Shown piece after piece: positions 17,534 through 40,380 of a DNA stretch of 64,000 bases; positions within the stretch are counted from its first letter, which is position 1, and each line of letters opens with the position of its first letter. The stretch comes from Dyella nitratireducens. GTDB taxonomy: Bacteria > Pseudomonadota > Gammaproteobacteria > Xanthomonadales > Rhodanobacteraceae. A program made the position numbers and the translations under genes. The notes under the pieces are model-generated. The model was not told the origin of the DNA and did not search any database. It saw only the letters and a program-made list of their open reading frames with translations. The DNA lies in assembly GCF_014642835.1 (NCBI RefSeq), contig NZ_BMJA01000001.1:688540-752539 (forward strand), in the 5' to 3' direction.

Positions 17534-18673
17534 CTATACGTCGTTTGCTGTGCCAGACGATGAATCCCCAAACAGATCCGCCACGCTGATCTGCCCGTTG
17601 TTCTTCGCATACAACTCTTTGTACAGTTCTGCCGCATCCATGCCGCCCCACGCTACCGCGCGGCGCAACAGATACGGCACAGGACTATGCGGTTCGATGC
17701 GTGCAAGAAATTCGGCGATGTCGGCCAGTACGCGATAGGCACGATCGCGATCGTTTAAATCGTTTTCGACGTCGGACGCTTCCGCATCATCGTCATCGGC
17801 CTGTCCGGCGATCGGCGGCCTGGGCAATGACGCCTCACGCCTGCTCAGTTCCGCACGTATAGGCGCGTGCACGCTGGTCAACAGTGCGTCGAGCTTGCTC
17901 AGCGTGGGGGCTTCCTGCGCAAGCTGCCGGCGCAAGCATTGCTCGAAAGCTTCGATGGCACGATGTGCCGCCATCAATTCGGCATGGCGTTCGCGCAATT
18001 CGCTCGAGCGCGCCGATGCCAGCAACTTGTGCAGATCGTCCAGCGTGGCGGCTTCTTCCGCTTCGGGCGGCAGTTCGCCGTTGGCGGCGCTCAGTCGTTC
18101 GTAGTGATGGGCCAGCTCCCAATCCGACCAGCTGGCGGATTGCTCGTCCTCGCCGACCAGGGGTACCAGCGACAGCGTGCGTAGCAGTTTTTCATTGACC
18201 CAACGCACGATGTTGATGCGCGCGTCGAAATCACCATGATCGCCTTGCGGATGCAGACCATCCCAGCAGGTTTCGCACAGGCCTTGCATCAGTGCGATGC
18301 ATGGCGCAATGGCGGCATAGCCGCGCTGCTGAATTTCCGCCTCCAGCAGCCACGAAGCCAATTGCAGATCTTTCGCGCTACCGGCCAGGATGTCGCCGAT
18401 CAACCTCGAGACTTTGGGCCAGTTGGCACGTTTCAGTTCGACGGCCCATGAGCCCATCGGCAGACTGGCGTCGTCGCCTCTCCGCGCTTGTTCCACCATG
18501 CGATACATCATGCTGCCGCGCACCGGCAGGCCCGCAGGGGCAACGGCGTCGATGGGGGCGAGCAAGCGCGCCAGCGATGTGCCCAGATGTGCTTCGAAAT
18601 AGCCGTTGTCGTCGAAGACCATGGCGGTCTCCGGCGGCGCGGTATCGTTTTGCATGACGGCCGGCTTGTTCAT
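17534..18673 (-). CDS. tssA: Type VI secretion system protein TssA
   Basis: 379 residues with an ImpA-type N-terminal domain ('VRGSMMYRMVEQARRGDDASLPMG', 'ANWPKVSRLIGDILAGSAKDLQLASWLLEA'), the hallmark of TssA. TssA caps the growing sheath and coordinates assembly of baseplate, tube and sheath. The C-terminal half is helical, with a conserved-looking 'RAYRVLADIAEFLARIEPHSPVPYLLRRAVAWG' block as in TssA C-terminal domains. The start lies 3 bases after the tssM stop, indicating one transcript. It is the last core T6SS gene of the cluster. Confidence 0.9.
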   Translation of the reverse strand: MNKPAVMQNDTAPPETAMVFDDNGYFEAHLGTSLARLLAPIDAVAPAGLPVRGSMMYRMVEQARRGDDASLPMGSWAVELKRANWPKVSRLIGDILAGSAKDLQLASWLLEAEIQQRGYAAIAPCIALMQGLCETCWDGLHPQGDHGDFDARINIVRWVNEKLLRTLSLVPLVGEDEQSASWSDWELAHHYERLSAANGELPPEAEEAATLDDLHKLLASARSSELRERHAELMAAHRAIEAFEQCLRRQLAQEAPTLSKLDALLTSVHAPIRAELSRREASLPRPPIAGQADDDDAEASDVENDLNDRDRAYRVLADIAEFLARIEPHSPVPYLLRRAVAWGGMDAAELYKELYAKNNGQISVADLFGDSSSGTANDV

Positions 18674-18676
18674 GCG

Positions 18677-21600
18677 TCACTGCTCCGTGGGCGCCAAGCG
18701 TGGAAAATCCGGCACGGTCAGGGCCACCATTGCCTTGCTGGCGGGATCGCGCGCAGACGCTTTCAACGTCAGATAGAACTGCGCCTTGCCGGTACCAGAC
18801 GGCGCGCCGGCACCTGCGGGTTGCTGCACAGGCACTTGGAACTGCAACAGCTGCTGTGCGGGATCGAGTGCGTTCGTACTCGCACTGGATTTATGCAGAT
18901 CACACAAACGCAACAGCGCCCATGCGCCACTGACCTGGAACTCGCTGTGATAGCCGCTTACATGCAGATCGGATTGATTGGCATCGGGCAATGGCTTGTA
19001 GCGCGACAGATCCGCCCATTGCAGATCCAGCGCGACCGGATCACCAACATTCCAGTTCACCGTGGTGGCAGTACCCGGCCAGCTGGCGCTGCTGTTGCCT
19101 GCTTGCAAGGTCCAGTGAATCATTTGGTTGCTATAAGGCGAATCAGCCGGCAAGGCACGGAAGCCTACGTCCAGCGATATCGGCGCACTTTGTGGTGCAG
19201 CAAGCAGGTTGCCGGCGAAGAAAGCCTGCACTGCATCCAGCTGATTGATGAAGCTTCTAATGCGCGACGCCTCCGCGCTCTTGGTGCTGGCGAGCCAGTT
19301 CTCCAGGGTGGGTTTTTCATTGGCGTAGTAGACAAAAAAAGCTTTCACTACCGCCGGGGATACATCCAGCGCATCGGGTGGACCAAACGGATAGCGTCCA
19401 GCCAGCTGGCTGTTGAACAAGGTGGAGATGCGCACGAAGTGCAGCGCGGCGTCGCTGTCGCTATTGCCCATGCATGCCATCTGCGCCGTGCGCAGCGTCG
19501 CCATGCGGCGCTCGGAAAACAGATCATTGCCCGCTTGCGCGGGCACGTAAGCATTCAAGGCACTGGCGCAATTGTCGTAACTCATCGCCCCCAACTGCTT
19601 CAGGAAGAAGTCGTTGATCTGCGCTACCTGCCCCGCCGGATCGGCGAACTGCAACTGACGGTTGAGTTCAGCGATCGTGTTGGCCCAATACACGCCGGAC
19701 TGCGAGTTGCTGCGGCGACTGTCGTCGACACCATCCGAATTCTTCAGCAAGGTCACGAATGGCGCCGCGTAGCCTGCCAACACTTGCGCACGCGACAGCT
19801 GCCGGTTGAGATATGACTGCAAGACCGGCGCGCTACCCAGGTCGAACACCGGCGTGCCGCCGTCTTGCTGAGTCAGTATCGACGGATCGTACAGATGGCT
19901 TGATGCTGCCAGCCCCGAAATATCCAGCAGCATGTCGGCAGCGTAGTTACGCCCACACTGGTCCATCTCGCCGGCCAAATCATTCATGCCAAGCTGGCGC
20001 ATGCGCCGCAGAGATTCCAGGTAAGGCCCAATCGCTTGCGCAAAGTTGGCGCTTTCGGTGGCGAGCATCTGCTCCAGTGGCGATGTCGCGTCCAGGCCAG
20101 TATCAAGACTGACATCCATGTGCGTGCGCTGATTGCGTGCCAGGCTGTCGGCCAATGCCAGCTTCAACTGGCTGCGCGCCAACCGGTCAAATAGTGGCCG
20201 ATTATCCGCGGAAGTATTCAAGGGGCTGATATTGCGTTCGGCCGCGAACACCAGGTACTGGCGCATTTGCGTGGACAGCTCGCCAAAGGTGTCGCTGCGC
20301 CAGCCACTGGCACCGCCGTTGCAGTGATACGGCTGCGGCGAAGACAACTGCATATAGCCCAGATTGACCAGCGCCGTGAGTCCGCTGGCTTCTGCGGACA
20401 ACCCGGGATCGATGCCCTCCAACTGCTGCGTGTCTGAATTCACCACGAACAGGGCTCCATAGGGTGGCAGCGATGCGCTGCGCAAGATATTCACCGCAGG
20501 CAGGTAGCACTCTTGCGTGCTGAAGCGATCCAGACCGGCGCGCAGGCTGGGATCGTAATGATGCGTATTGATCAGTACATCCAGCTCCGACTTCAAGGTG
20601 CGCGCGACGAATGAGCAGGGGTTCAAGGTGGGCGTGGAGGTCAGCCACGAGCCGCGTATCCAATCCATCCATGCATTGAACCGGTGCAGCTGCGGAAGTA
20701 TCGGTGGCTTGTCTTCCTGTAACGCAGCCAATAGCGGAATGCCAGCCTTCAGCCGTTGCAGCAGCAGTTGCCGTGACTGCAGGGCCAACATGTTCAATTC
20801 GCGGATCACCCGCGCACGACGCTCCGCCGTCATCCGCGGCGGATCAGGGTAGCTGGCTTTCACCAAAGCATCAGCAAGGATGTTATTGCTGGTAAGCAGA
20901 GGCGAAGGCAAAGGCTTGCCGTAGATGTAGTCGGCCAGCTCGCTGAAATCCTCCAGCATGCGCTGGCGGTCGAGCTCCGAACCCGTGCGTGACACATATG
21001 CGAAGCGATCCAGCTGGTCTTCCAGATTGACCAGATCAGCCAGCAATTGCCTTACCTGGTTCAGCAACCGCAGGTCCGCCGTGGCCGGCGCCTCATCATC
21101 ACTGCCGGTCTGCAACGTCACCGACGACAACGCATCGATCTGCTTTTCCAGGCTACATGCCATCGATGGCAGGATCACCTTCCGCAGCGCCTGCGCAGCA
21201 ACTACATCGCGAATGCCCTGGTTGACCCTGCGATCCACCCATGACAGTGGAATCGCCAGATAGCGCGTGCGCGTGTCCAGCGAGGCTACCTCTTCCATCA
21301 ACGGATAGACATCGTCCTTGCTCAGGCAGCCAAGCTGCGCCAGGCGCCTGCTGCTCACCGACACGTCGACGATAGTGTCATGCAAGACCTGGGCTTGTGC
21401 ATTCACCCGCGCCGCGGTCCAGGGCAAGGCAATCGCCAGTACGGCAGCAGTCCCGATCAGGCCCAGTTGCAAACGGCGGATCAGCTGGTTGCGCAACAAC
21501 AACCCTTTTTGCGTGCGCTGTGCGAGTCGCTGCTCGGCAAACACTTTCTGCGCCATCAGTTGTTCGACGAAGGCGACATCCTTGCGCGCTGCCGGCACCT

Positions 21601-22615
21601 GACTCTCGGTGGCGTGAAGGCCGACGACGCCGGTGAAATAGATACCGCGGCAAAACGCGCGCGTTTCATAGGCGTCCGTGCGAAACAGCTCGCCCAGAAA
21701 AGTATTCAGTGGCGGTAACAGTCCGCGCATATACAGCGGGAACAGAAAGAAATTGTCCGCATCGTCGATGGTGTCGCGCTGCGTGGCTGCCTCCAGCACT
21801 AAGGCACGGAACCCATCGATGAGCCGGTCGAACGCCTTGCCCACCCATTCGGCGGGGGTGCCGTTGTCATCGATGGTGGGGCTGGACCAGCCCACGATCT
21901 CGCGATAACGCGACTCCGGCTGCGCCCGCCAGAACGCATCGAAACCCTGCACGGCATCGCAATGGCTGACCACCACATACACCGGCAACGCGAACGCATA
22001 GGCATCCTGTAATTCGCACAGACGTGCAAAGGCGTGCTGCCCCATCGCTTTCCACTGCGCCTGACCGGCGGCAAGCAGCCGCGCAACGGAGATCACCCAG
22101 ACCACGCCATCCAGGGCGCGGTCGGGACGCAGGCTGTCGATATCGGCCAGCAGGTTGGGCCAGCGCGCATCGCTGGCCGCGCCGGGTTCGCCGATCGTGC
22201 CTTGTGGATCGATCAGGATGCCGCGTTGAAGAAAATGGCATGTCGCATCGGGCAAGACGGCACGCAACCAATCTTCTTGCTTGGTATTGCGCTGCAGGCG
22301 TGCGTGCTGCAGGGATTCAGGAATCGATGCGGCGAGACTGCTTTTGCCATCGCCGGGAAAGCCCATCAGCAATAGCCAAGAGCTTTGGTAGCGCCAGTCG
22401 CGGCGGGCGATCAGATAACGCCAGCCACGGTCGATCAGGCGCCAGGCGTTATGGATGATGGTGCGCAGCCGCTGCCAGAAGTCACTCACGTCCTTGGCGG
22501 TGGGACGCGGGAGCCGTTTGATGCCGTCGCGGAGCAGCTTGAGGCTGCGCTGGGGCAGCACCGGCACCAGGACAATGGTAGCGAGCAACAGCAATGTCAG
22601 CGCAAGAATGATCAT
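18677..22615 (-). CDS. tssM: Type VI secretion system membrane protein TssM (IcmF family)
   Basis: 1312 residues, within the normal TssM size. An N-terminal hydrophobic helix ('ILALTLLLLATIVLVPVLP') is followed by a cytoplasmic domain with Walker A 'GFPGDGKSS'. Another transmembrane helix follows near residue 390 ('LGLIGTAAVLAIALPWTAA'), then a long periplasmic domain that contacts TssJ. TssM with TssL and TssJ forms the trans-envelope channel. The intact P-loop suggests the ATPase-type subgroup. It is flanked by tssL upstream and tssA downstream with almost no spacing. Confidence 0.95.
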   Translation of the reverse strand: MIILALTLLLLATIVLVPVLPQRSLKLLRDGIKRLPRPTAKDVSDFWQRLRTIIHNAWRLIDRGWRYLIARRDWRYQSSWLLLMGFPGDGKSSLAASIPESLQHARLQRNTKQEDWLRAVLPDATCHFLQRGILIDPQGTIGEPGAASDARWPNLLADIDSLRPDRALDGVVWVISVARLLAAGQAQWKAMGQHAFARLCELQDAYAFALPVYVVVSHCDAVQGFDAFWRAQPESRYREIVGWSSPTIDDNGTPAEWVGKAFDRLIDGFRALVLEAATQRDTIDDADNFFLFPLYMRGLLPPLNTFLGELFRTDAYETRAFCRGIYFTGVVGLHATESQVPAARKDVAFVEQLMAQKVFAEQRLAQRTQKGLLLRNQLIRRLQLGLIGTAAVLAIALPWTAARVNAQAQVLHDTIVDVSVSSRRLAQLGCLSKDDVYPLMEEVASLDTRTRYLAIPLSWVDRRVNQGIRDVVAAQALRKVILPSMACSLEKQIDALSSVTLQTGSDDEAPATADLRLLNQVRQLLADLVNLEDQLDRFAYVSRTGSELDRQRMLEDFSELADYIYGKPLPSPLLTSNNILADALVKASYPDPPRMTAERRARVIRELNMLALQSRQLLLQRLKAGIPLLAALQEDKPPILPQLHRFNAWMDWIRGSWLTSTPTLNPCSFVARTLKSELDVLINTHHYDPSLRAGLDRFSTQECYLPAVNILRSASLPPYGALFVVNSDTQQLEGIDPGLSAEASGLTALVNLGYMQLSSPQPYHCNGGASGWRSDTFGELSTQMRQYLVFAAERNISPLNTSADNRPLFDRLARSQLKLALADSLARNQRTHMDVSLDTGLDATSPLEQMLATESANFAQAIGPYLESLRRMRQLGMNDLAGEMDQCGRNYAADMLLDISGLAASSHLYDPSILTQQDGGTPVFDLGSAPVLQSYLNRQLSRAQVLAGYAAPFVTLLKNSDGVDDSRRSNSQSGVYWANTIAELNRQLQFADPAGQVAQINDFFLKQLGAMSYDNCASALNAYVPAQAGNDLFSERRMATLRTAQMACMGNSDSDAALHFVRISTLFNSQLAGRYPFGPPDALDVSPAVVKAFFVYYANEKPTLENWLASTKSAEASRIRSFINQLDAVQAFFAGNLLAAPQSAPISLDVGFRALPADSPYSNQMIHWTLQAGNSSASWPGTATTVNWNVGDPVALDLQWADLSRYKPLPDANQSDLHVSGYHSEFQVSGAWALLRLCDLHKSSASTNALDPAQQLLQFQVPVQQPAGAGAPSGTGKAQFYLTLKASARDPASKAMVALTVPDFPRLAPTEQ

Positions 22616-22648: not shown

Positions 22649-23407
22649 TCATGTCGTGCTCCCGATCACGTTGAGCAGCGACCACGTCAGCATCAGCCAC
22701 AACAGCGACGACAGGATCAGGTAGGCCACCGTGCCATAGGCCGCCCAGCGCAGCCACGGCGTCAATGCCGTGCGGGTGTTGTCGCGGTCATTCACTACGG
22801 TGTACTGGTAAGCCTGCGCGAACATGCGGCCGGTGTCGCCATCCAGCTTGCGTCCGCTGGCAAGCGGATACAGCTTGGTACGACAAGCGCGCAGCGCCGC
22901 CTGCCCTTCCATACCGCGATACATGCCCTGGAACCCAAGCTGCAGGGCCAGCAGATAGACCGCAGCCAGATCAGCGTCCAACGACGTGCGTTCGCGAATG
23001 CCCAGTTGCTCCCGCACATAATCGAAAAATTTCCGTCCCGCGATGCGCGTACCGGCGACCGCATGCTCCAGCAAATATTCGGGCCAGTATTCCGCCGATG
23101 GCCAGGACAGGTTGAGAATGAAAATCTCGTCCGCCAATGCCACCATCGCATAACGCGTGCGGCGATAGATCTCCATCTCCGCATCAGTGGCCTGCGCGGC
23201 GATGTCGTGCGAAAGTTTGTCGATGATCGCCCTCAACCGTTGCGAAATGCGCTCGGCAAGCTCCTGCGGTTCGATCGTCGCGTAGGGTTCACCCGGTTGC
23301 AGCAGGCGCACCACATCCTTGTTCTTGATCGCCAGCTTCAGCCGCGCCACCTCTTCGTAGAACGTGCCAAAACAGGTCAGAACGCGCGGCGATTCCGTCC
23401 CGGCCAT
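22649..23407 (-). CDS. tssL: Type VI secretion system membrane protein TssL (DotU/IcmH family)
   Basis: 252 residues from the ATG at 23407, which overlaps the tssK stop (TGATG); a GTG one codon earlier is possible. The cytoplasmic DotU domain is recognisable ('RYAMVALADEIFILNLSWPSAEYW', 'ILEHAVAGTRIAGRKFFD'-type block). The single C-terminal transmembrane helix is 'AAYGTVAYLILSSLLWLMLTW'. There is no OmpA-like peptidoglycan-binding extension, so anchoring to the wall must come from another protein. TssL links the membrane complex to the TssK baseplate. The gene is translationally coupled to tssK. Confidence 0.94.
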   Translation of the reverse strand: MAGTESPRVLTCFGTFYEEVARLKLAIKNKDVVRLLQPGEPYATIEPQELAERISQRLRAIIDKLSHDIAAQATDAEMEIYRRTRYAMVALADEIFILNLSWPSAEYWPEYLLEHAVAGTRIAGRKFFDYVREQLGIRERTSLDADLAAVYLLALQLGFQGMYRGMEGQAALRACRTKLYPLASGRKLDGDTGRMFAQAYQYTVVNDRDNTRTALTPWLRWAAYGTVAYLILSSLLWLMLTWSLLNVIGSTT

Positions 23408-24819
23408 CACGCGCTCCCCTGGGTGCGCTGCTGCGTGCGCGGCAAATACAGCGTGATGCCGGCTGGAACGTTGTCGTCAGGTTCACCCAGGATCACCAGC
23501 ATGGCGCCGTCCATGATCAATGGGCGCTTGGTCTGCGCATCCACCTCGATGCTGCCGTTCTCGATTTCGTATACATAGGCGCCGGGCCGCAGGTTGAGCG
23601 CCGTCACCGTGGCGGCATTGGCCGCCTGCGGTGTGGCACCAGGGAAGCGGCGGCGCACCAGCAGATAGATCAAATCCTCGGTGGCGGTGCGTGCGCCGCT
23701 CAGCCATTGGTTCAAATGGCTGCCGTTCTGTCCTTGGCGCGGACGCAGCTCGATCAGCAGTTTGTCGGTTGCTATACCGGATGGGAGCTGGCAGCGGAAA
23801 CCTGCGGCGCCCACCTGCTCGAAATCGATCGCGGTGTAGCCGGCATTCAAGCGCGCCAACTGCTTCTGCACATAGTCGATGCCGATACGGAATGCCGGCA
23901 TGCATTGCTCGTGCGCATAGGCAGCCAGCGCGGGCGGCGGCTCGGCGCTGGCGACGGCGGCGGTCAACCCCACCAACTGCGCCAACGCCTTGTACAAATC
24001 ATAAGGATGCGTGATGTCGGCCTGCAGCAGCACGTCGAACAGCGGCATGCCCGCTACCAGCTGACGCGCCGCCATGACTTGCGGATTGGCATCGCCCGTG
24101 AAACGCGCATCACTGCGGTCGGTGAGACGAAGCCCCAGCAATTCGCGGTATTTGATCCAGACCGCTTCGGAAAGCTTTTTCAGCAAGACGTGCAAACCGC
24201 TTTCGCCTTGAAAGGCACAGGCAGCCATGCGCAGCATGGGCGGGTGATAATCCGTCAGATGCACGCCGCGCGCGTCACCTTGCAGTTCCAGTAGCGGCAT
24301 GGCGCAGTAGCTGCGCGCCACTGCTTCACCTGCAACCAGGCTGATGCACGGACGCAAGCGGTCCACCGCGATATCGTCGCCACCGGTCGTTTCGTCCGCC
24401 TCCAGTTGCCCCTGCTCAACGGTGTAACGCTGCATATCGCCGATATTGCTGGCCGCGCCTTTGCCGCGCACCGGAACGCGCAGTTGCACGAATACCTTCT
24501 TCTCGGTATTCCAATCGTGCCTGGACAAATCCAACGTCAACGGCTGCGGCGCGTAATGGCCGGGATATTCCACCAGCAAGCCGTCCGGCATCACGCAACG
24601 CAGGCGATCGATGATCACCTTGCCCTTCACCAGTTCCGTGGCATCCACCGCCATGTCCAGCACGCCCCAGCACCAGGGCTGCAACACCGACATGTAGTGA
24701 TGCAGCAACCGTCCCCAGTAAATATCGTTTTGCTGGAAATGTTGCGGCGACAGCAACATGCCTTCCGACCACGAAATCGCTTCGGGAAACAAAGGCGGAT
24801 TGTCGGGCAACATGTTCAT
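23407..24819 (-). CDS. tssK: Type VI secretion system baseplate protein TssK
   Basis: 470 residues, the usual TssK length. The start 'PEAISWSEGMLLSPQHFQQNDIYW' is the family signature. TssK is the trimeric adaptor that docks the baseplate wedges (TssE, TssF, TssG) on TssL/TssM. The middle contains 'PCISLVAGEAVARSYCAMPLLEL' and the C-terminal head domain ends near 'RPLIMDGAMLVILGEPDDNVPAGI'. It begins 4 bases after tssJ ends and its stop overlaps the tssL start, consistent with coupled translation in one operon. Confidence 0.95.
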   Translation of the reverse strand: MNMLPDNPPLFPEAISWSEGMLLSPQHFQQNDIYWGRLLHHYMSVLQPWCWGVLDMAVDATELVKGKVIIDRLRCVMPDGLLVEYPGHYAPQPLTLDLSRHDWNTEKKVFVQLRVPVRGKGAASNIGDMQRYTVEQGQLEADETTGGDDIAVDRLRPCISLVAGEAVARSYCAMPLLELQGDARGVHLTDYHPPMLRMAACAFQGESGLHVLLKKLSEAVWIKYRELLGLRLTDRSDARFTGDANPQVMAARQLVAGMPLFDVLLQADITHPYDLYKALAQLVGLTAAVASAEPPPALAAYAHEQCMPAFRIGIDYVQKQLARLNAGYTAIDFEQVGAAGFRCQLPSGIATDKLLIELRPRQGQNGSHLNQWLSGARTATEDLIYLLVRRRFPGATPQAANAATVTALNLRPGAYVYEIENGSIEVDAQTKRPLIMDGAMLVILGEPDDNVPAGITLYLPRTQQRTQGSA

Positions 24820-25695: not shown

Positions 25696-25769
25696 GAGTG
25701 GTTGTCCGTTTTTCAATCAGGTGTGTGTTGCCTGCCTCTTCGCTCGAAAGCGAAGACAGTGCGCATTTG

Positions 25770-26324
25770 CTATCCCAAACTCACCCGCTCTGCATCAATC
25801 TTGGCGTCCTGCCTTGCGGTTACGATGGCGTGCTCCCCATGTAGCCGCAGCAATTGCCGCGCATCGAGCAGAAACCGATCCACCTGCCCCACGCAGTTTC
25901 GCGCGGTGTGCACCAGCGATTCGACTGCACTGGTGAACACATCACGTGCGCGCAAGGACAGCGCACCTTGCGCGGCGGTGATCTCCACCTCATGCGCTGC
26001 ACGCAAGGCAATCGTCTGCGTTGCCGCGACATCGACCCGGCTCTGGCGGATCGACAAGCTGTCCGCGCCCGGCACTGTCAGCGTGGCGTTGTGCCGTTCG
26101 GTACGCGCAAGCACATGCAGCACGTAATGGCTTTCATCGGCCATGCACACCAGCAGCACGCGGTCGCCAGGCTGGGGTGTGATCAAACACGACGTGGCCT
26201 GCCGCGCGGAACGTCCGTCATCAAGGCGCCAATGATCATCACTCAGCGCTTCGTGGATCACGGCTTCAGATAGTTGCGGGCTGTTGCGCTGGCGCGTCAG
26301 GCTGCGGCGAGAGGTGGCAAACAT
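25770..26324 (-). CDS. DUF3540 T6SS-associated protein
   Basis: 184 residues. An AAGGAG site sits 8-9 bases before the ATG at 26324, which is preferred over the ATG two codons earlier that is too close to it. The sequence contains 'PQPGDRVLLVC', alternating strands around 'LSIRQSRVDVAATQTIALRAAHEVEITA', and a helical end 'VGQVDRFLLDARQLLRLHGEHAIVTARQDAKIDAERV'. This resembles the C-terminal DUF2345-like strand repeats of VgrG proteins. DUF3540 proteins occur with DUF2169 and DUF4150 in T6SS loci and probably act in effector loading or spike assembly; the mechanism is unknown. Confidence 0.75.
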   Translation of the reverse strand: MFATSRRSLTRQRNSPQLSEAVIHEALSDDHWRLDDGRSARQATSCLITPQPGDRVLLVCMADESHYVLHVLARTERHNATLTVPGADSLSIRQSRVDVAATQTIALRAAHEVEITAAQGALSLRARDVFTSAVESLVHTARNCVGQVDRFLLDARQLLRLHGEHAIVTARQDAKIDAERVSLG

Positions 26325-26342
26325 AGTCATATCTCCTTGAAT

Positions 26343-27431
26343 TCAAGAAAGAGCGAGGGCTCGGCGCTCGGCCAGCAACCGTGCAGATGAAGTGCCGCGC
26401 AAACGTTTTCGCCGCGACAGAAACAAATTCACCCAACGGAAACGGGTGTTATGCCAGCTGCCATAAGCCAGATCGGCGCGACCGAAATTGACGCGGTGCC
26501 CGCTGGCATGATCGAAGTGCGCATAGCGCAACAAGGCGCGCGAAAAATCCACCTTGCTGAAACGTGCGTGGCTCCACACGCTTTGATTGGCCAGCGCACC
26601 TGACAAGTCGACGTTTTTCAGCGTCACCGATGACGCATTCAGGTTTTCGCAACGCAGGCTGCGCGCGTCAACGTGCTCCAACGTTGCTTCCAACAACAAG
26701 GCACTCGACAGATCGGCACCACGCAATTGCGTGTGCAGAAAGCGGGCCTGGCGGCAATTGCTTTCGCGTAAATCCGCATCGCGCAGGTCGGTAGCGACAA
26801 AGCTCGCCCCATCGAGCTGGCAGCGGCGCAAGTTCAGCGCACGCAGATCCATGCCGTCGAAACAGGCTTTATGCAGCACGCAGGCTTCGGCGCTGAAGCC
26901 GTTTAGACGCAAGCCGCGGAAATCTACCCCAGGCAAGGCCGATTGCGACAGTTTGGCGTCTTCCAGGTTGACGCCGCCGAGCTGGCAGGAGCCGATCATG
27001 CATCGATGCCAGCTGCTGCGCGCCAGCGTGGCTGCACTGAGGTCGCAGCTGTGCAGGATGGTCATCGACAGGGCTGCATCCTGCCAGGCGCTATGCGTGA
27101 GCTTGCATTCGGCCAGTGCGGATCGCTCGACACGTGCGCCATGCCAGCGAGTACCACTGAGATCGCAACGGGTAAAGGTACAGCTGTCGAGGTTTGCGCC
27201 ATCCAGATTCGCACCGCTCAGGTCGCAATCGATAAAGCTCAAGGCCTGCAACTGGCTGCCGCGCAAAACGGCGCCACGCCATACGACGTTGCAGAACACC
27301 AATGGCTCAATGGTGCGACCGCTGCCGTCCAGTGCAGCCAGATCTACATCCTGCACCGGGCGACGGAGGCGCCGCAGGTGTTCGATGTCGGCCCAGCTAC
27401 CGATCGAGTGCCGATCACACGTCATGCTCAT
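26343..27431 (-). CDS. Pentapeptide-repeat protein of the T6SS cluster
   Basis: 362 residues from the ATG at 27431, which overlaps the upstream stop by 4 bases (ATGA). Most of the protein is pentapeptide repeats of the A(D/N)LxX type, for example 'LSGANLDGANLDSCTFTRCDLSGTRW' and 'ADLRESNCRQARF', predicted to fold as a right-handed quadrilateral beta-helix. It has no signal peptide. It is translationally coupled to a DUF2169 protein that itself ends in pentapeptide repeats, so the two probably form a long rod-like complex. Similar proteins accompany VgrG/DUF2169 sets and may serve as effector adaptors (inference). Confidence 0.85.
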   Translation of the reverse strand: MSMTCDRHSIGSWADIEHLRRLRRPVQDVDLAALDGSGRTIEPLVFCNVVWRGAVLRGSQLQALSFIDCDLSGANLDGANLDSCTFTRCDLSGTRWHGARVERSALAECKLTHSAWQDAALSMTILHSCDLSAATLARSSWHRCMIGSCQLGGVNLEDAKLSQSALPGVDFRGLRLNGFSAEACVLHKACFDGMDLRALNLRRCQLDGASFVATDLRDADLRESNCRQARFLHTQLRGADLSSALLLEATLEHVDARSLRCENLNASSVTLKNVDLSGALANQSVWSHARFSKVDFSRALLRYAHFDHASGHRVNFGRADLAYGSWHNTRFRWVNLFLSRRKRLRGTSSARLLAERRALALS

Positions 27432-30016: not shown

Positions 30017-30023
30017 GCGTGCC

Positions 30024-32957: not shown

Positions 32958-34081
32958 GCTGCCTCCACCATCGCATCCGCCGTGATCGTGAAACGCACCT
33001 GCCGCAGCGCCTGTGGCCGGCCACGCAGCCACGCCGTCTGCCCTAATCGCAAGCCATGGCTGCCAAAGCCCGCAACGGGACGTGGACGCCACAATGCGGA
33101 CGCAGGAATACCCGCTTCGTCCACGCCGATCGTCACCACGACGTCGACTTGACGATCGAACAGGTAGTGCAGCATCGCGGCGAAATTCCGGTAGGCGCGG
33201 CCAAATCGGCTGCCAGCATTCAGGCCGTGCGTGCGATCGGGCAGCAGGCTGCACAAGCGCTCATACGGCACCGGGCCGATCGCCAGCCCCACCGCAGCAT
33301 GATTGACCCATACGCGGCGCCCCAAGGGCGCCGTACGCAGATGGCGCCGTCCCAGCAAAGTGCAGTCACGCGCATCGATCGTGCGCCATGCACCCAACAA
33401 CGGTTCGATCGTCACCGCCATGCCCAGATAAATACGCAACACGATCAAGGCTTGCGTCACACTGCGGCGTTTGTCGGCCATCAAACCGCACAACGCCAGC
33501 AAGGCGCGCCTTGGCATGGGCACACGTTGGGCCAGGATGCGCGCACCCTCTCCCTCGAACGCGGCCAGGCCCATCAACGCACCGGCCGCCTCGGCACAGC
33601 GCGTGTATTCGGGACGCAAGGCATCGAAGGCGGGCACACTGCCCGCTTTCAATTCGTAGCGCAGGACGCCGAGACGATGATTGAAGAGGTCGAGAAACTC
33701 GGCCATGGCCGTTTCACGCACGCCAAGCTGCCGCCGCACCCATTCCGTATAACTGTCCGGCAAGGGACCGAGCACACCGGCCAAAGTGAAATTGGTGACG
33801 TACAAGTCGGTGCGCTGCCTGGACTGCTCGCGTCCGGGACGCACCGGCAAACGCATGCGTCCTGCAGAAATTTCACTGCCGGGAAAAGCCGGTGACAACT
33901 CGCCGCGAAAACGCAGTTGCGGGCTGACTTCGCGCACGCCATGCTCGATGGTGTAAGGCGTCACACCCGAGCCGGATGGCCAGGACTGCAAGCGCACCCA
34001 TTGGAAGAAATCGAAGCTCGCTGGACGCCGCGCGAGCCGTTGGCTTAAAGCTTCGCCCGTGCGCCAGTCAGCGGTGGCCAT
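32954..34081 (-). CDS. tssG: Type VI secretion system baseplate protein TssG
   Basis: 375 residues with the TssG (VasB/ImpH) pattern: 'FDFFQWVRLQSW' near the start, 'LYVTNFTLAGVLGPLPDSYTEWV' and 'EFLDLFNHRLGVLRYE', all family landmarks. TssG forms baseplate wedges with two TssF and one TssE around the VgrG hub. Its beginning overlaps the tssF end by 37 bases and its stop overlaps the vgrG start (ATGA). This compact packing indicates coupled translation. Confidence 0.95.
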   Translation of the reverse strand: MATADWRTGEALSQRLARRPASFDFFQWVRLQSWPSGSGVTPYTIEHGVREVSPQLRFRGELSPAFPGSEISAGRMRLPVRPGREQSRQRTDLYVTNFTLAGVLGPLPDSYTEWVRRQLGVRETAMAEFLDLFNHRLGVLRYELKAGSVPAFDALRPEYTRCAEAAGALMGLAAFEGEGARILAQRVPMPRRALLALCGLMADKRRSVTQALIVLRIYLGMAVTIEPLLGAWRTIDARDCTLLGRRHLRTAPLGRRVWVNHAAVGLAIGPVPYERLCSLLPDRTHGLNAGSRFGRAYRNFAAMLHYLFDRQVDVVVTIGVDEAGIPASALWRPRPVAGFGSHGLRLGQTAWLRGRPQALRQVRFTITADAMVEAA

Positions 34082-35871
34082 GATTTCAGCTCCCCTTGTT
34101 GATCGGAGGATTCGAGCGTCAGTTCAACGACGGTATGGGTCTCCGCATACAAAGACAGGAAACGATGCAGCACGCTGCCGAACAACACGGCGCTGCCACC
34201 CTCGAAATGCCCAAGATCCACCTGCGCGCGCACCTCGATGCAATCGGCAAAGCCTCGCCATGCCTCGCGGCGCGGCATGCGCCGCTGTACGCGACGGCTG
34301 GTCAGTGCGCGCAATCCGTCGATCTGGCGGTAACCCGTGGTACTGGCTGGTCCCACATGCAGTCGCAGCATGTTCTTCAACACCGGAGGGCCGCGTTCGC
34401 CATCGATCAGCGACAGGTGATTCAGGCACAACTGCGATACCAGCGCCCAGGGACGATCGCCCACCATCTGCGGCGGCTGGTTCGGCGTGGGCTTGCTCGC
34501 CGCAATCAGCATCGACACGGGGCCTGCGCCTTCCAGATACAAGGTGCTGCCCAGCTGCAGCTGGGAAGGCAGGCGCCGATTGGTGCACAAGGCACTGCCG
34601 CCAATCATTTCCTCGGCCGGCAAGCTGAGGTCGAAATTCGGATCGAGAAACGACACATACGTTTCGGTGCCGTGCACCGCGCCGGTCTGGTTGACCTCGC
34701 GACGCGTAGCGTAGAAGTAATCCAGCTTTTCCATCTGCTGCATGTCATCCAGCGAAAAATACGGCGCGATTGGACGCGGACTGCGATCCGGGCGGATCGA
34801 GACCAGTTCCTCCAGGCTGTGGATTTCGCAATAGCGATGGTTTACCTGATCACCGGCAAGCCGATATTCGTAATGTTGCTGATCGAGCACGAAAGGCTCG
34901 ATGCGCTGCGGATACAGGTTGATCAACGGCACGCAATTCAAGCGCAACAGCTCGCGGTCAAGCGGATTCTGCTTCGGTGCCGGCGTATCCAGCAGAAACA
35001 GCAATTCGAATTGTTTGCCTACGCCCGACCAGTCCAATCCGTCCACTTCGAAGAACAGGAACTTCTGCGGAAAAACGAAATATTCCTGCACCAGGCGGTA
35101 GCCAGGATGGGTCAAGGGATGCGTGCCCAGCATCGCCTCGTCATCTTCGAACCCACACCAGCGCAGCCGGTCGGCATCGATGTAGCGCAATTCGCCGCTT
35201 TCCGGCACGCGCAAGGCCATGCGCACCAGATGTGTCGACAAGGCGTCATAGAATGCATAGGCGTGTTTGTGCTCGGCATGAATGCAGAAACGCAGAGAAG
35301 GCATTTTCATCGCATGCGCCGGATCCTTGCCCTGGCATTCGATGACCGCTCGCGCGATGGACAAGGTGCGCGTATCGCTACGCTGCAAGGGAAAGGTATT
35401 GGCACCAACCATCGTCAGCTCGGTCAGCTTCAAGGGCCACAGCGGCGTATCGCAGCTGGTGCGAAAGCGGCAACGCATCTGTTGTCCGAGATCATTGGTG
35501 GCCATCGCGTAAACGTGGCGCCCACGCTCCAGGGTCACGCCGTGCATGAAATTTGCACCTTCCGGACGCACTTCGATCTCGGCCAGCAGCATCGATGGCA
35601 ATGGCGCTTCCAGATGCGGATACAACAAGCCAAGCAGCGCATTGGGCAATACCGCTTGATCCATTTCCAATTGATAGCGCAAACGTCCGGCCATCCACGC
35701 GAACGATTGCAGCAGCATATCCACCTGTGGATCGCTGCTGCGTCCGCCGCTCAGTTCCAGGTTCTTCGCCACCGCGGGATACGCTTGGCCAAACTCCACC
35801 GCCTCGGTGCGCAGCGCAGCCATCTCCTGTTCGAACCACATTTTCAAGCGTGGCGCAGCGGCGTTGTTCAT
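34045..35871 (-). CDS. tssF: Type VI secretion system baseplate protein TssF
   Basis: 608 residues, normal for TssF (VasA/ImpG). Typical blocks are 'WFEQEMAALRTEAVEFGQAYPAVAKNLEL' at the start, 'DPQVDMLLQSFAWMAGRLRYQLEMD', and 'LLYPHLEAPLPSMLLAEIEV' soon after. It is a core wedge protein of the baseplate that contacts TssG, TssK and VgrG. The start overlaps the tssE stop by 4 bases. Nothing is truncated or missing. Confidence 0.96.
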   Translation of the reverse strand: MNNAAAPRLKMWFEQEMAALRTEAVEFGQAYPAVAKNLELSGGRSSDPQVDMLLQSFAWMAGRLRYQLEMDQAVLPNALLGLLYPHLEAPLPSMLLAEIEVRPEGANFMHGVTLERGRHVYAMATNDLGQQMRCRFRTSCDTPLWPLKLTELTMVGANTFPLQRSDTRTLSIARAVIECQGKDPAHAMKMPSLRFCIHAEHKHAYAFYDALSTHLVRMALRVPESGELRYIDADRLRWCGFEDDEAMLGTHPLTHPGYRLVQEYFVFPQKFLFFEVDGLDWSGVGKQFELLFLLDTPAPKQNPLDRELLRLNCVPLINLYPQRIEPFVLDQQHYEYRLAGDQVNHRYCEIHSLEELVSIRPDRSPRPIAPYFSLDDMQQMEKLDYFYATRREVNQTGAVHGTETYVSFLDPNFDLSLPAEEMIGGSALCTNRRLPSQLQLGSTLYLEGAGPVSMLIAASKPTPNQPPQMVGDRPWALVSQLCLNHLSLIDGERGPPVLKNMLRLHVGPASTTGYRQIDGLRALTSRRVQRRMPRREAWRGFADCIEVRAQVDLGHFEGGSAVLFGSVLHRFLSLYAETHTVVELTLESSDQQGELKSWPPLTGARAKL

Positions 35872-36218
35872 GCGACGGCCCCCTGCATCGGCAATTCAAA
35901 GCGGAATGCGTGATTTTCGGCCTCTTGCTGCAGGCGTCCGGTAACCACCAAGGTACGTCCGCTCGGCTGCCATTCCAATTTCAGATCACTCAAACGGGGT
36001 TCGTATTGGGCAATCGCACTGGCCAAAGCCGCGCCATAGCGCTCCTGATCACGCAGGCCGGTGCCGAAATCGACGATCGCAGGCATGCCGAAGTCGCACA
36101 CATGCACACCGCCACGCGCGACATAAGGACGGCATTCCACCAAGCGCTGGATCTGCGCGGCAACATGATCGGCCAATGTGATCTGCGGGCTTTGAAGTCG
36201 TTCTAACAGAAAGGGCAT
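35868..36218 (-). CDS. tssE: Type VI secretion system baseplate protein TssE (gp25-like)
   Basis: 116 residues. TssE is the gp25 lysozyme-like wedge component that nucleates sheath polymerisation. The sequence shows 'LLERLQSPQITLADHVAAQIQRLVECRP', 'GMPAIVDFGTGLRDQERYGAALASAIAQYEPRL', where the Glu-Pro-Arg is the highly conserved EPR motif of gp25 proteins. It is somewhat shorter than many TssE proteins, mostly at the N-terminus. The start is 54 bases after hcp ends and the stop overlaps tssF. Confidence 0.93.
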   Translation of the reverse strand: MPFLLERLQSPQITLADHVAAQIQRLVECRPYVARGGVHVCDFGMPAIVDFGTGLRDQERYGAALASAIAQYEPRLSDLKLEWQPSGRTLVVTGRLQQEAENHAFRFELPMQGAVA

Positions 36219-36878: not shown

Positions 36879-39242
36879 TCAGGCCGCTGGCAGATCCGCC
36901 ACAAGGCGAATCGAGGTGGTGAGTTCTTCGAGCTGAAAATGCGGTTTGATGAATACTGTCGCTTTGTACGCGCCGGGGGAGCCTGGCACCTCGGTAACGT
37001 TGATTTGCGCAGCGCGCAGCGGATAGCTGGCCTTGACCTCCTGCGATGCGTTGTCGTCCAGCAGGATGTACTGGGCGATCCAGGTGTTGAGATACGCTTC
37101 GATATTGCCGCGCGTGAGAAACGCGCCGATCTTCTTGCGCATGATCACCTTGATGTAATGCGCAAAGCGCGACGCGGCGAGGATGTAAGGCAGCATCGCC
37201 GACAGCTTGGCATTGGCATTGGCTTCGTCGCTGATGTACTGGCGCGGCTGGTTGGTGGTCTGCCCGCCAAAGAACGCCGCCTGGCCGGTACCCTTGCAAT
37301 TGCACAGCGAGATAAAGCCGAGATCGTTCAGTTCTTTCTCGCGGCGATCGGTGATCGAAACCTCCGTGGGGCAGATCATGTTCACCATGTCTGCATCGTC
37401 CCGATAGGTGTACACCGGCAGGCCGTCGACCAGGCCACCACCTTCTACACCGCGGATGGCCGCGGTCCAGTGATAGAGCGCGAACGCATGGGTGATGCGT
37501 TCGGCCAGCACATAGGCAGCATTGCCCCACAGGAAATTATTGTGCTCGGGGCCGTTGTCGCCCGTCACGGTTTCCTCGTATTTCACGCCTTCTGCGGGCC
37601 GCGAATCCTTGCCGTAGGGGAGGCGCATCAACGCATGCGGCAAGGTCAGCGCCACATAGCGCGAATCCTCGCTGCCGCGGAATTCCGTCCATTGCGCCAG
37701 TTCCGGCGATTCGAACAGCTGGCCCAGATCGCGCGGCTTGGCCAGCTTGTCGAAACTATCCAGGCCAAACAAACCCGGCGAGGCCGCTGCGATAAACGGC
37801 GCATGAGCTGATGCCGCCACCTGAGTCATCTTGCTGAGCAGCGACATATGGTTGGGCGAATGATCGAATTCGTAGCCACCTACCAGCAGGCTGTAGGGGG
37901 AACCGCCATAAGTGCCGAACTCAGCCTCGTAAATCATTTTGAAAATGCAGCTTTGATCAAAATCCGCTGCTTTTTCCAGTTCCTTGCGCAAATCGTCCAT
38001 GGTCGTGTTGAACACGCGCAGCTTCAGCAGCTTGCCGCTTTCTGTACGCGACACCAGGTAAAACAAACCGCGCCAGGTCGCCTCCAAATCCTTGAATGCT
38101 GATGCATGCATGATCGCGTCGAGCTGCACCCCGATCTGCACGTCGATGCCGCCAGCGCGCTCGTCGATCATGCCGCTCACGCCCAGCGCAACACTGTCGA
38201 GTTCCTTGGCGCCCATCGGCACGATGATTTCATTGGTGAAGCGCCCCACCAGACGGCGTGCCTTGGACAAGGGATCGATCGCGATATACGCCTGCATGCG
38301 ATCCGTGGCCGCCTGGGCAGTGCTGTCCATCAGCTTCTTGGCCGCATCGGCTTGCGATTGCGCCAACAACAACGCCGTGTCCGCATCGTTCTTGGCTTTC
38401 TGTGCCGCGACCAGCGCTTTATTTGCATCGGCGATCGCCTGGTCTCCCGAAGCGCTCTTCGCGTTGTCGCCAGCGGAAGTCAGTGCTGTGGCTGCACTCT
38501 GCACAGTTTGCTTCGCCGTATCTAAGGCGCTTGCCGCGGCATCGTTATCTTTCTTGGCCTTGTCGGCGGCCTGTGCGGCAGCATCGGCAACGTCCTTGGC
38601 CGCGCTCGCCATCGCAGCGTTGCCCGCCATTTGCGCGGCCAACAAAGTCACCAAGGCAACGGATACATCCTTGCCGGCGCTCGGCAATGGCGCCACCGCG
38701 CTGGGATCGAGCGAGACCTTGACCCAGTCGGACGGCATCTGCGTGGAAAACGCGCTCTTCAACGCGCCGATCGCCTCAGCATCGAGCAAGGAACCGTCCA
38801 GCACGGATGCCAGCGAATCATTGCATTCGGCCATCGATTGCAAGGCACGCAGATCAGCGCGTGCGTCGTAACGCTGCTTGAGGCTGTCGACCTTGTTGAC
38901 GATGGCCAACGGCTCGAAATCGGAAAGGCTGCCAAACTGCATCGGCCCATTGAGCTTTTTGCCGCCGCCGGCGATCAGGTCGGGGATGCCGTCGAGCTTC
39001 ATCGTCGGCGTGCATTCGGCGAGCACTTTGTCGAACGACTCGCTGTCTATGTCGCGCATGCGGCGATCCTTCATCGCCGGCAGCACACCTGCATCCACCT
39101 GCCCCGAAAGATCGGCAAAGATGCCCACGATGAAAGCCAGCTCCACTTTCTCGATCGCATCACCGGTTTCGACATCGTAGGTAATGCGTACGCGCGGCGG
39201 CCTTACGCGCAGCAGCTTTTTCTGGATGCTTTCGACGGTCAT
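36879..39242 (-). CDS. tssBC: Fused type VI sheath protein TssB-TssC
   Basis: One uninterrupted frame of 787 residues contains both sheath subunits, normally separate genes. The ATG at 39242 has a GAGG site 8 bases upstream. Residues 1-150 are TssB/VipA: 'PPRVRITYDVETGDAIEKVELAF', 'RMRDIDSESFDKVLAE', 'SDFEPLAIVNKVDSLKQRYDARADL'. Residues ~150-317 are a linker, Ala/Lys/Asp-rich and coiled-coil-like from ~195 ('ALDTAKQTVQSAATALTSAGDNAK'). Residues ~318-787 are TssC/VipB: 'LEATWRGLFYLVSRTESGKLLKLRVFN', 'YGGSPYSLLVGGYEFDHSP', 'VIMRKKIGAFLTRGNIEAYLNTWI'. The contractile sheath is built from TssB-TssC heterodimers in a 1:1 ratio, so a fusion would fix stoichiometry. No separate tssB or tssC and no clpV gene is found in the window. 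Confidence 0.93.
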   Translation of the reverse strand: MTVESIQKKLLRVRPPRVRITYDVETGDAIEKVELAFIVGIFADLSGQVDAGVLPAMKDRRMRDIDSESFDKVLAECTPTMKLDGIPDLIAGGGKKLNGPMQFGSLSDFEPLAIVNKVDSLKQRYDARADLRALQSMAECNDSLASVLDGSLLDAEAIGALKSAFSTQMPSDWVKVSLDPSAVAPLPSAGKDVSVALVTLLAAQMAGNAAMASAAKDVADAAAQAADKAKKDNDAAASALDTAKQTVQSAATALTSAGDNAKSASGDQAIADANKALVAAQKAKNDADTALLLAQSQADAAKKLMDSTAQAATDRMQAYIAIDPLSKARRLVGRFTNEIIVPMGAKELDSVALGVSGMIDERAGGIDVQIGVQLDAIMHASAFKDLEATWRGLFYLVSRTESGKLLKLRVFNTTMDDLRKELEKAADFDQSCIFKMIYEAEFGTYGGSPYSLLVGGYEFDHSPNHMSLLSKMTQVAASAHAPFIAAASPGLFGLDSFDKLAKPRDLGQLFESPELAQWTEFRGSEDSRYVALTLPHALMRLPYGKDSRPAEGVKYEETVTGDNGPEHNNFLWGNAAYVLAERITHAFALYHWTAAIRGVEGGGLVDGLPVYTYRDDADMVNMICPTEVSITDRREKELNDLGFISLCNCKGTGQAAFFGGQTTNQPRQYISDEANANAKLSAMLPYILAASRFAHYIKVIMRKKIGAFLTRGNIEAYLNTWIAQYILLDDNASQEVKASYPLRAAQINVTEVPGSPGAYKATVFIKPHFQLEELTTSIRLVADLPAA

Positions 39243-39630: not shown

Positions 39631-40380
39631 ATGGCCAGCGACAGCACCAAGCTCGCCGTCTTGATCGATGCCGACAACACCCAGCCGGCCATCGCAGACG
39701 GTCTGCTGGCCGAGGTGGCCAAGTACGGCACCGCCCATGTGAAGCGCGCTTACGGCGATTGGACCGGCAATCAGCTGAAGAGCTGGAAAGAACAACTGCT
39801 CACGCAGTCGATCCAGCCGATCCAACAATTCAGTTACACCAGCGGCAAGAACGCCACCGACTCGGCGATGATCATCGATGCGATGGATTTGCTCTATTCC
39901 GGCCGCTTCGATGGCTTTTGTATTGTCTCCAGCGACAGCGACTTCACCCGGCTGGCGGCGCGCATTCGCGAATCGGGCCTGATCGTGTACGGCTTTGGTG
40001 CACGCAAAACGCCCGAGCCATTCGTTGCTGCGTGCGACAAGTTCATTTACACCGAAATCCTCACGTCCAAGCCGGACGAAGAACAGCCATTGCAACCGCG
40101 CTCGCCGGCACAGTTGAAGAAGGATGCCGGCCTGATCAACCTGCTGCGCAACGCCATCGACGCCGCATCCGACGACGAAGGCTGGGCAGGGCTGGGCGGC
40201 GTAGGTTCGATCATCACCAAGCAGCGGCCGAATTTCGACTCCCGTAGTCATGGTTATGGAAAGCTGAGCGACCTGATCGCTGCGATCGACCTGTTCGAGT
40301 TGGATCGGCGCAGTCCAGGCGAAGGTCGTCCCAAGGCCATCTACGTGCGCAATAAACGGAAACCGGTGGCTCGTGGCTAG
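39631..40380 (+). CDS. NYN-domain (LabA/DUF88-type) putative ribonuclease
   Basis: 249 residues with a PIN-like NYN domain: 'LAVLIDADNTQPAI' (Asp13, Asp15), 'KNATDSAMIIDAMDLLYSG' and 'FCIVSSDSDFTRLAARIRESG', which supply the cluster of acidic residues expected for metal-dependent RNA cleavage. The C-terminal third ('LINLLRNAIDAASDDEGWAGLGGVGSIITKQRPNF' and 'YGKLSDLIAAIDLFEL') looks like an OST-HTH/LOTUS RNA-binding domain. A strong GGAGG site precedes the ATG. It overlaps tilS by 8 bases, so the two are co-translated. It is divergent from the T6SS operon and may be backbone rather than island. Confidence 0.88.
   Translation: MASDSTKLAVLIDADNTQPAIADGLLAEVAKYGTAHVKRAYGDWTGNQLKSWKEQLLTQSIQPIQQFSYTSGKNATDSAMIIDAMDLLYSGRFDGFCIVSSDSDFTRLAARIRESGLIVYGFGARKTPEPFVAACDKFIYTEILTSKPDEEQPLQPRSPAQLKKDAGLINLLRNAIDAASDDEGWAGLGGVGSIITKQRPNFDSRSHGYGKLSDLIAAIDLFELDRRSPGEGRPKAIYVRNKRKPVARG

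What the first reader, a model, noticed from the sequence alone, without database searches (positions are those of the whole stretch)
36879..39242. Natural fusion of the T6SS sheath subunits TssB and TssC in one gene
A single 787-residue frame joins a complete TssB (about 1-150) to a complete TssC (about 318-787) through an Ala-rich, coiled-coil-like linker of ~165 residues. TssB and TssC are normally separate genes. In V. cholerae the N-terminal helix of TssC (VipB) is the ClpV docking site, and here that N-terminus is internal. A fused subunit would fix 1:1 stoichiometry and could change contraction, sheath stability and recycling. The linker must run on the sheath surface or in its lumen, a new structural element. 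I know of engineered VipA-VipB fusions but cannot recall a described natural one.
Basis: partly seen in the sequence, partly recalled or inferred. Interest (0 to 1): 0.9.

Follow-up and report, generated by a model that had tools for sequence, protein, structure and literature searches.

The report
Fused two-part sheath of bacterial harpoon
In a branch of type VI secretion systems (contractile bacterial harpoons), the two proteins that normally build the contractile sheath are made as one chain, and the same gene clusters lack ClpV, the motor protein that normally takes the used sheath apart.

Summary
Window 36879-39242 (minus strand) is one 787-aa frame: TssB (residues 7-165), an Ala-rich linker, TssC (306-785), both over curated cut-offs. 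It is no assembly join: 39 of 80 related loci have both domains in one frame. In a 97-row tree, 42 fused rows plus one split over contigs form one clade (SH-aLRT 100); three other fused rows fall elsewhere. New here: these clusters have no ClpV, the sheath-recycling ATPase. Of 45 fused genomes searched, 30 have no ClpV over cut-off; the other 15 also carry a separate tssB. In the phylum sample 94 of 101 genomes with only separate tssB have one. A LLDxII-type ClpV-docking motif is in 50 of 74 separate TssC and 0 of 44 fused. The linker is predicted as a long helical hairpin; by homology it lies on the outer surface. Most likely a single-chain, ClpV-independent sheath; how it is recycled is unknown, and the fusion-ClpV link rests on few independent events. 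No earlier description was found in the held library.

The parts
36879..39242 (-). tssBC: single gene for a 787-aa TssB-linker-TssC sheath protein
   Evidence: translation; Pfam and NCBIfam hits above cut-offs; conserved frame
38748..39242 (-). TssB part, residues 1-165
   Evidence: PF05591 12-164; TIGR03358 7-165
38289..38747 (-). linker, residues 166-318, 47 Ala of 153
   Evidence: from the end of the TssB match; composition and heptads; dN/dS 0.12-0.37 in four pairs
38277..38675 (-). predicted helical hairpin within the linker: helices 190-204, 206-263 and 267-322
   Evidence: AlphaFold2 model, pLDDT 92-98 in the ten-residue blocks 191-320; Ala heptads on both long helices
36882..38288 (-). 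TssC part, residues 319-787 (family match from 306)
   Evidence: TIGR03355 306-785; PF05943; PF18945
36273..36839 (-). Hcp (TssD)
   Evidence: PF05638 70.6 bits over cut-off; TIGR03344 below its cut-off
35868..36218 (-). TssE-like
   Evidence: PF04965 and TIGR03357 matches below curated cut-offs; position in the operon
34045..35871 (-). TssF
   Evidence: PF05947 521.7 bits
32954..34081 (-). TssG
   Evidence: PF06996 161.6 bits
30024..33254 (-). VgrG (TssI); the listed start overlaps tssG, true start probably downstream
   Evidence: PF05954 119.8 bits
27428..30016 (-). DUF2169 plus pentapeptide-repeat protein (TvpAB-like spike chaperone)
   Evidence: PF09937, PF00805; Tvp naming from passages of PMC13373197
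26343..27599 (-). pentapeptide-repeat protein (TvpB-like)
   Evidence: PF13599, PF00805
25770..26330 (-). DUF3540 (TvpC-like)
   Evidence: PF12059 104.5 bits
25297..25716 (-). PAAR-like spike tip
   Evidence: PF13665 100.8 bits
24824..25300 (-). probable TssJ lipoprotein
   Evidence: no Pfam or NCBIfam match; lies next to tssK here and in relatives; lipobox-like LATSC near the N-terminus by eye
23407..24819 (-). TssK
   Evidence: PF05936, TIGR03353 208 bits
22649..23410 (-). TssL (DotU)
   Evidence: PF09850 85.5 bits over cut-off; TIGR03349 below cut-off
18677..22615 (-). TssM (IcmF), divergent
   Evidence: PF14331 155.6 bits; TIGR03348 below cut-off
17534..18673 (-). TssA
   Evidence: PF06812; TIGR03363 217 bits, over cut-off

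Best explanation
The gene encodes a single-chain type VI sheath protomer. TssB and TssC are joined C-terminus to N-terminus at the place where, in known sheaths, both ends meet in outer-surface domain 3, so one chain can fold into the usual heterodimer without rearrangement. In the window's lineage the junction carries an inserted alanine-heptad helical hairpin of about 130 residues that projects from, or packs on, the outer surface. The fusion belongs to a T6SS lineage whose clusters keep the other core genes but have no ClpV and no LLDxII-type ClpV-docking motif. The sheath therefore assembles and contracts without ClpV-based recycling. Shown: the fusion, its spread, one main origin on the tree, the missing ClpV and motif. 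Predicted: hairpin fold and position. Inferred: that the protein forms a working sheath, and that loss of ClpV made the fusion tolerable.
For: Both domains over curated cut-offs in one frame. 39 of 80 related loci fused in one frame. One clade of 42 fused rows plus L063, support 100. No ClpV by BLAST in the DNA held around the fused loci, up to 10 kb a side and often less. Of 45 fused genomes searched, 30 have no TIGR03345 match over cut-off. Of the 27 of these with no separate tssB hit and no ClpV fragment, 23 show a full-length ClpB-level match, so the search worked there. Controls with only separate tssB: 94 of 101 in the phylum sample by the listed rows and 10 of 10 tested in the order sample, out of about 110 there (two of these are shared). 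Motif L[LIV]Dx[IVL][IVLM]: 50 of 74 separate, 0 of 44 fused; a looser pattern 62 of 74 and 2 of 44. The linker is coding and constrained. Invariant Ala in one heptad phase, 7 of 9, p about 3e-5, or 3e-4 if drawn from the window's alanines only. Model pLDDT 83.6, pTM 0.79, hairpin blocks 92-98, ends 1-26 and 770-787 mostly below 50 as expected of arms that pair with neighbours. A short-linker relative is modelled with the same two domains, pTM 0.85, pLDDT 93-97 through the junction and no hairpin. Foldseek finds solved TssC sheath subunits first.
Against: No expression, sheath or secretion data. The link between fusion and ClpV loss rests on few events: only 2 independent pairs on starred branches, which cannot reach significance. 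Separate-gene systems without ClpV exist (L069, L071, L132, L133), so ClpV loss does not require fusion, and 7 of the 101 phylum controls also lack an over-cut-off ClpV. The docking motif is also missing in 24 of 74 separate proteins, the genome's own second TssC among them. Some fused genomes are incomplete MAGs; 4 of the 27 (G427, G430, G834, G836) lack a full ClpB match too. The hairpin is a prediction for one monomer; long Ala-rich helices are easily predicted with high confidence, no pair error was shown and no ring was modelled.
Confidence: 0.74

Rival explanations
1. The fused sheath is still actively recycled, by the general disaggregase ClpB (or another Hsp100) in place of ClpV, as in Francisella.
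For: 23 of the 27 fused-only genomes show a full ClpB-level match. ClpB disassembles the ClpV-less Francisella sheath (passages of PMC5481754).
Against: A ClpB-level match is also listed in most ordinary genomes searched, so its presence says little. No adaptor or new AAA+ disassembly gene was seen in the operons looked at.
Confidence: 0.4
2. The sheath is not actively recycled: after firing it is left, degraded or falls apart by itself, and the surface hairpin or the covalent join tunes this stability.
For: No ClpV and no LLDxII-type motif. Contractile phages and pyocins do not recycle their sheaths, and pyocin sheaths lack domain 3 (passages of PMC5807055).
Against: Helices at the domain-3 positions are kept in the models. 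No kinetic data.
Confidence: 0.3
3. The ClpV of the genome's second, ordinary T6SS serves the fused sheath in trans.
For: The window genome and 14 other fused genomes carry an over-cut-off ClpV with another system, and G424 carries a ClpV fragment.
Against: 27 fused-only genomes have none; the docking motif is absent; ClpV-TssC pairs are cognate-specific in EAEC (passages of PMC5048182).
Confidence: 0.08
4. Assembly artefact, or a degenerate read-through of two genes.
For: None found.
Against: Both domains in one frame in 39 of 80 loci from many assemblies. Purifying selection on the linker. The neighbouring core genes are open.
Confidence: 0.01
5. The chain is cut after translation, or TssC is also made from an internal start, so the working sheath is made of two proteins as usual.
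For: Not excluded by sequence; an in-frame ATG at residue 205 is invariant in the 13 aligned close relatives.
Against: In the window gene no Shine-Dalgarno-like site was found before in-frame starts at residues 200-358; AGGA precedes only TTG197 and GTG198. Some relatives join the domains with almost no extra sequence, leaving little room for a start or cleavable spacer.
Confidence: 0.1

Closest known systems
Canonical T6SS sheath TssB/TssC (VipA/VipB), closest solved: Azotobacter vinelandii sheath 9n4v
   Same: Both domains and the TssC fold (9n4v_A 58% identity by Foldseek; E 3.4e-177 by sequence); tssB before tssC as in the separate-gene relatives
   Different: Two genes there, one here; free TssC N-terminus there; ClpV recycling in the canonical system
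Francisella-type T6SS (IglA/IglB, ClpB-recycled)
   Same: No ClpV; a ClpB available
   Different: IglA and IglB are separate chains (3j9o_A and 3j9o_B); sequence only distantly similar (E 2e-62 for TssC)
Single-chain phage, pyocin and eCIS sheaths
   Same: One chain per protomer; weak fold match (T4 sheath E 3.4e-5)
   Different: Here the chain is a fusion of TssB and TssC with T6SS-type domain-3 helices, in a nearly complete T6SS operon
Class III Tvp spike cassette of Serratia marcescens (VgrG, DUF2169-pentapeptide, DUF3540, PAAR)
   Same: Same set of spike accessory genes beside the window's vgrG (class definition from passages)
   Different: It concerns the spike, not the sheath; five marine-type gammaproteobacterial fused clusters show no such genes next to tssG

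Membership tests
TssB (contractile sheath small subunit) | match to TIGR03358 / PF05591 over curated cut-off | tested here: met
   107.6 bits (cut-off 97.25) and 113.4 (cut-off 24)
TssC (contractile sheath large subunit) | match to TIGR03355 / PF05943 / PF18945 over curated cut-off | tested here: met
   594, 384 and 150 bits
Canonical T6SS | tssB and tssC as separate genes | tested here: not met
   one 787-aa frame; the second T6SS of the same genome meets it
Canonical T6SS | ClpV (TssH) in the cluster | tested here: not met
   no TIGR03345 match in the window; the only over-cut-off ClpV of the genome is at C2:860402, about 8 kb from the separate tssB
Canonical T6SS | TssC N-terminal ClpV-docking helix (LLDEII type, V. 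cholerae mode) | tested here: not met
   motif absent in 44 of 44 fused proteins tested, out of 46 rows; not universal among separate ones (50 of 74)
Canonical T6SS | baseplate, tube, spike and TssA genes | tested here: met
   TssA, F, G, K, Hcp and VgrG over Pfam cut-offs; TssE below cut-off
Canonical T6SS | membrane complex TssJ, TssL, TssM | tested here: inconclusive
   TssL and TssM over Pfam cut-offs, below NCBIfam cut-offs; TssJ only by position and a lipobox-like motif
Canonical T6SS | assembles a contractile sheath and secretes Hcp | not testable with these tools
   needs experiment
Francisella-type T6SS | Francisella-type gene set and ClpB-dependent sheath disassembly | not tested
   only similarity to IglA and IglB was seen

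The most novel reading that the evidence does not exclude
A coherent, apparently undescribed class of T6SS in which the sheath protomer has returned to a single chain and dedicated ClpV recycling was lost in its ancestor. These harpoons fire with no dedicated disassembly ATPase, being single-use or self-disassembling, and the former ClpV dock has become a free surface site where lineages insert helical structures of very different length.
Probability: 0.35. Interest if true: 0.85.

Novelty: new variant of a known kind. Interest (0 to 1): 0.73.

Why it matters
Sheath recycling by ClpV is taken as a defining advantage of T6SS over phage tails. A lineage that fused the two sheath proteins and has no ClpV is a natural experiment on whether such recycling is needed, and on why TssB and TssC are separate elsewhere. 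It gives a single-gene sheath, handy for structural work and engineering of contractile tubes, and a new surface element to study. Searches that require clpV, or separate tssB and tssC genes, would miss or misread these systems.

Tried and rejected
Rejected: assembly join or pseudogene. Lumenal linker (homology to a solved sheath). One-off oddity. A hidden ClpV in the operon: BLAST with the genome's own ClpV and ClpB found none in the DNA held around the fused loci (for short contigs this is only a few kb), and tiling of six fused loci showed no substitute. One upstream gene shared by three marine clusters looks like a sigma-54-type regulator by eye, not a disaggregase. Led nowhere: independent-pairs test, too few events. 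VIA-align library not available. Model coordinates were not among the files I saw, so the distance between the TssB and TssC ends was not measured. Natural fusion in print: the listings showed no such report. One search matched 106 papers, of which 20 were listed and few opened. Passages of Boyer 2009 (PMC2660368) and of the Xanthomonadales T6SS review (PMC6653060) do not mention it. Most subscription papers are not in this library.

Weak points of counts. The regular expression dropped 2 of 46 fused rows (L068, L078), whose anchor motif was not found; 30 of the 74 separate rows come from one order. L063 was counted as fused because its TssB lies on another contig in a 426-aa frame. In one search the listed rows give 76 of 80 genomes over cut-off, the tool's own tally says 78; I use 76 (G694, G775, G593 and G799 show only a ClpB-level best E), hence 94 of 101; with 78 it would be 96. 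G424 is counted among the 30 without an over-cut-off ClpV but carries a ClpV fragment and a separate tssB. In one search, 16 separate rows of unknown ClpV state and L063 and L092 were dropped, and fused loci in multi-system genomes were scored as without ClpV by distance. The split of the linker at residue 268 was chosen after looking at the alignment. The scan used patterns from the linker as well as from the domains, so its 39 of 80 is not an unbiased frequency. The order sample gives 11 of 121 T6SS-bearing genomes with a fused frame, the phylum sample 4 of 105, the window's own included in both.

Full report
Observation. The minus-strand frame at 36879-39242 translates to 787 aa without an internal stop. 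Pfam and NCBIfam place TssB at residues 7-165 and TssC at 306-785, all over curated cut-offs. The surrounding genes on the same strand are hcp, a tssE-like gene, tssF, tssG, vgrG, a spike-chaperone set (DUF2169-pentapeptide, pentapeptide, DUF3540, PAAR-like), a probable tssJ, tssK, tssL, tssM and tssA. Every core T6SS gene is accounted for except clpV, with less certainty for tssE and tssJ. The spike set matches what the Tvp authors call class III (passages of PMC13373197).

The same genome. A second T6SS lies on contig C2 with separate tssB (C2:852265), tssC (C2:852946) and the genome's only ClpV over cut-off (C2:860402).

Spread. Of 398 genomes drawn from the same order, 121 have TssB and 11 of these show it in a frame of 789 aa or more, each confirmed as fused from its sequence. 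Of 397 drawn from the phylum, 105 have TssB and 4 show a fused frame, the window's own included. A scan of one genome per species with the protein gave 80 loci, of which 39 hold both domains in one frame. By record title these include Dyella, Oleiagrimonas, Rhodanobacter, Luteibacter, Chitiniphilus, Trinickia, Robbsia, Rhodocyclaceae, several marine-type gammaproteobacteria and one SAR324 MAG. That scan is not an unbiased frequency.

Origin. A tree of TssB and TssC cores without the linker (97 rows, 45 fused) puts 42 fused rows and L063 in one clade with SH-aLRT 100. L063's contig starts inside the gene, and its TssB is on another contig in a 426-aa frame. Three fused rows (L067, L102, L123) fall elsewhere; with L063 left uncounted, 4 changes of state are needed, and 1 without these three. 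So there is one main and up to three further fusions. The search was a quick one and several end branches are long.

ClpV. Among 45 fused genomes searched with TIGR03345, 30 have no match over cut-off. The other 15, and also G424 with a ClpV fragment below cut-off, all carry a separate tssB. Where fused gene and ClpV share a contig they lie far apart (G402, 95 kb; G615, 63 kb; G415, 327 kb) and the ClpV sits near a separate tssB. No ClpV was found by BLAST in the DNA held around the fused loci, though for short contigs this is only a few kb. Of the 30, G424, G297 and G835 also show a separate tssB, the last two at contig ends, leaving 27 fused-only genomes. Of these, 23 show one full ClpB-level match, so detection worked. 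The eleven fused-only genomes of the order and phylum samples are at least 90% complete and none has ClpV. Controls with separate tssB only: 94 of 101 in the phylum sample by listed rows (2 of 2, 16 of 19, 76 of 80, where the tool's tally says 78), and 10 of 10 tested in the order sample. A Fisher test of 0 of 11 against 94 of 101 gives p about 6e-11, but this ignores kinship. With kinship considered there are only 2 independent pairs on starred branches, mostly in the expected direction and none against, and no significance is possible. Four separate-gene rows on the tree also lack ClpV.

Docking motif. [quoted passage not shown] cholerae (passages of PMC4239648 and PMC5048182). A motif of that type is in 50 of 74 separate TssC and 0 of 44 fused ones; a looser pattern is in 62 and 2. 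In short-linker marine fusions the helix region is still recognisable by eye but altered; in the window's clade it is replaced by the linker.

Linker. Between anchor positions 150 and 358 of the window protein, 39 fused proteins have 49 to 363 residues (median 110, window 208). The shortest are no longer than the free ends of separate proteins put together, so a long linker is not needed for fusion. The window's clade (13 sequences) has an Ala-rich linker with invariant alanines in a heptad: 7 of 9 in one phase before residue 268 and 3 of 3 in another after it (p about 3e-5 and 0.01; 3e-4 and 0.04 if drawn from the window's alanines; split chosen after inspection). AlphaFold2, given 69 sequences, predicts helices 206-263 and 267-322 with a short turn between, at pLDDT 92-98. 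The turn agrees with the change of heptad phase. A short-linker relative is modelled without the hairpin and otherwise with a similar order of helices. The linker evolves faster than the domains but under purifying selection.

Position. In the Pseudomonas sheath a TssB helix near the C-terminus and two TssC helices near the N-terminus form outer-layer domain 3, and the untraced ends lie at the outer extremity (passages of PMC5807055). Joining them is therefore topologically simple, and the hairpin should lie outside. This rests on homology and a monomer model; Foldseek confirms the TssC sheath fold.

Mechanism. Most likely the protein is a single-chain protomer that assembles around Hcp as usual, with the flexible arms 1-26 and 770-787 linking neighbours. 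The lineage has no ClpV recycling. Whether ClpB takes over, as in Francisella (passages of PMC5481754), or whether the sheath is single-use, cannot be told from sequence. I favour ClpB slightly, because a ClpB is nearly always available and firing without any turnover would be costly; this is inference.

Novelty. The listings of searches in the held library showed no natural TssB-TssC fusion, and passages of two surveys that could have reported it (PMC2660368, PMC6653060) do not mention one. It is a new variant of a known kind.

Noticed in passing
window 25297-33254: VgrG of up to 1076 aa with DUF2169-pentapeptide, pentapeptide, DUF3540 and PAAR-like genes: a class III Tvp-like spike cassette built into the main T6SS operon; five gammaproteobacterial fused clusters (L087, L089, L103, L107, L110) run from tssG straight to tssJ-K-L-M.
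   Followed up: partly
L069, L071 (an acidobacterial and an unclassified MAG), L132, L133 (unnamed 1.2-1.4 Mb genomes): T6SS with separate tssB and tssC but no ClpV over cut-off in the genome.
   Followed up: partly
L067, L102, L123: Fused TssBC outside the main clade, two of them among alphaproteobacterial-type sequences: possible independent fusions.
   Followed up: partly
L057, L060, L078: Fusions with 287-363 residues between the anchor positions in Rhodoferax, Roseateles and Oxalobacteraceae MAGs, apparently lengthened independently of the Dyella clade.
   Followed up: partly
L107:8266-9402, L087:7968-9314, L110:6170-7450: A shared gene upstream of tssBC in three clusters that looks by eye like a sigma-54-dependent activator.
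   Followed up: no
L124 (G297, contig end): A very divergent separate tssB/tssC at a contig end in a genome with a fused system and no ClpV over cut-off.
   Followed up: no
G099, G209, G124, G149 and others: Weak but over-cut-off TssB matches (profile positions about 20-122) inside frames of about 490-600 aa in two families of the order; the nature of these proteins is unknown to me.
   Followed up: no
L128 (G790): A tssB match in a 142-aa frame, no TssC hit by BLAST in 20 kb, and a ClpV match cut to a 500-aa frame: looks like a decaying T6SS.
   Followed up: no
window 15254-17476 and 39631-40380: A 740-aa protein with a GNAT domain downstream of tssA, and a divergently oriented NYN/OST-HTH (LOTUS) protein beside tssBC.
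   Followed up: no
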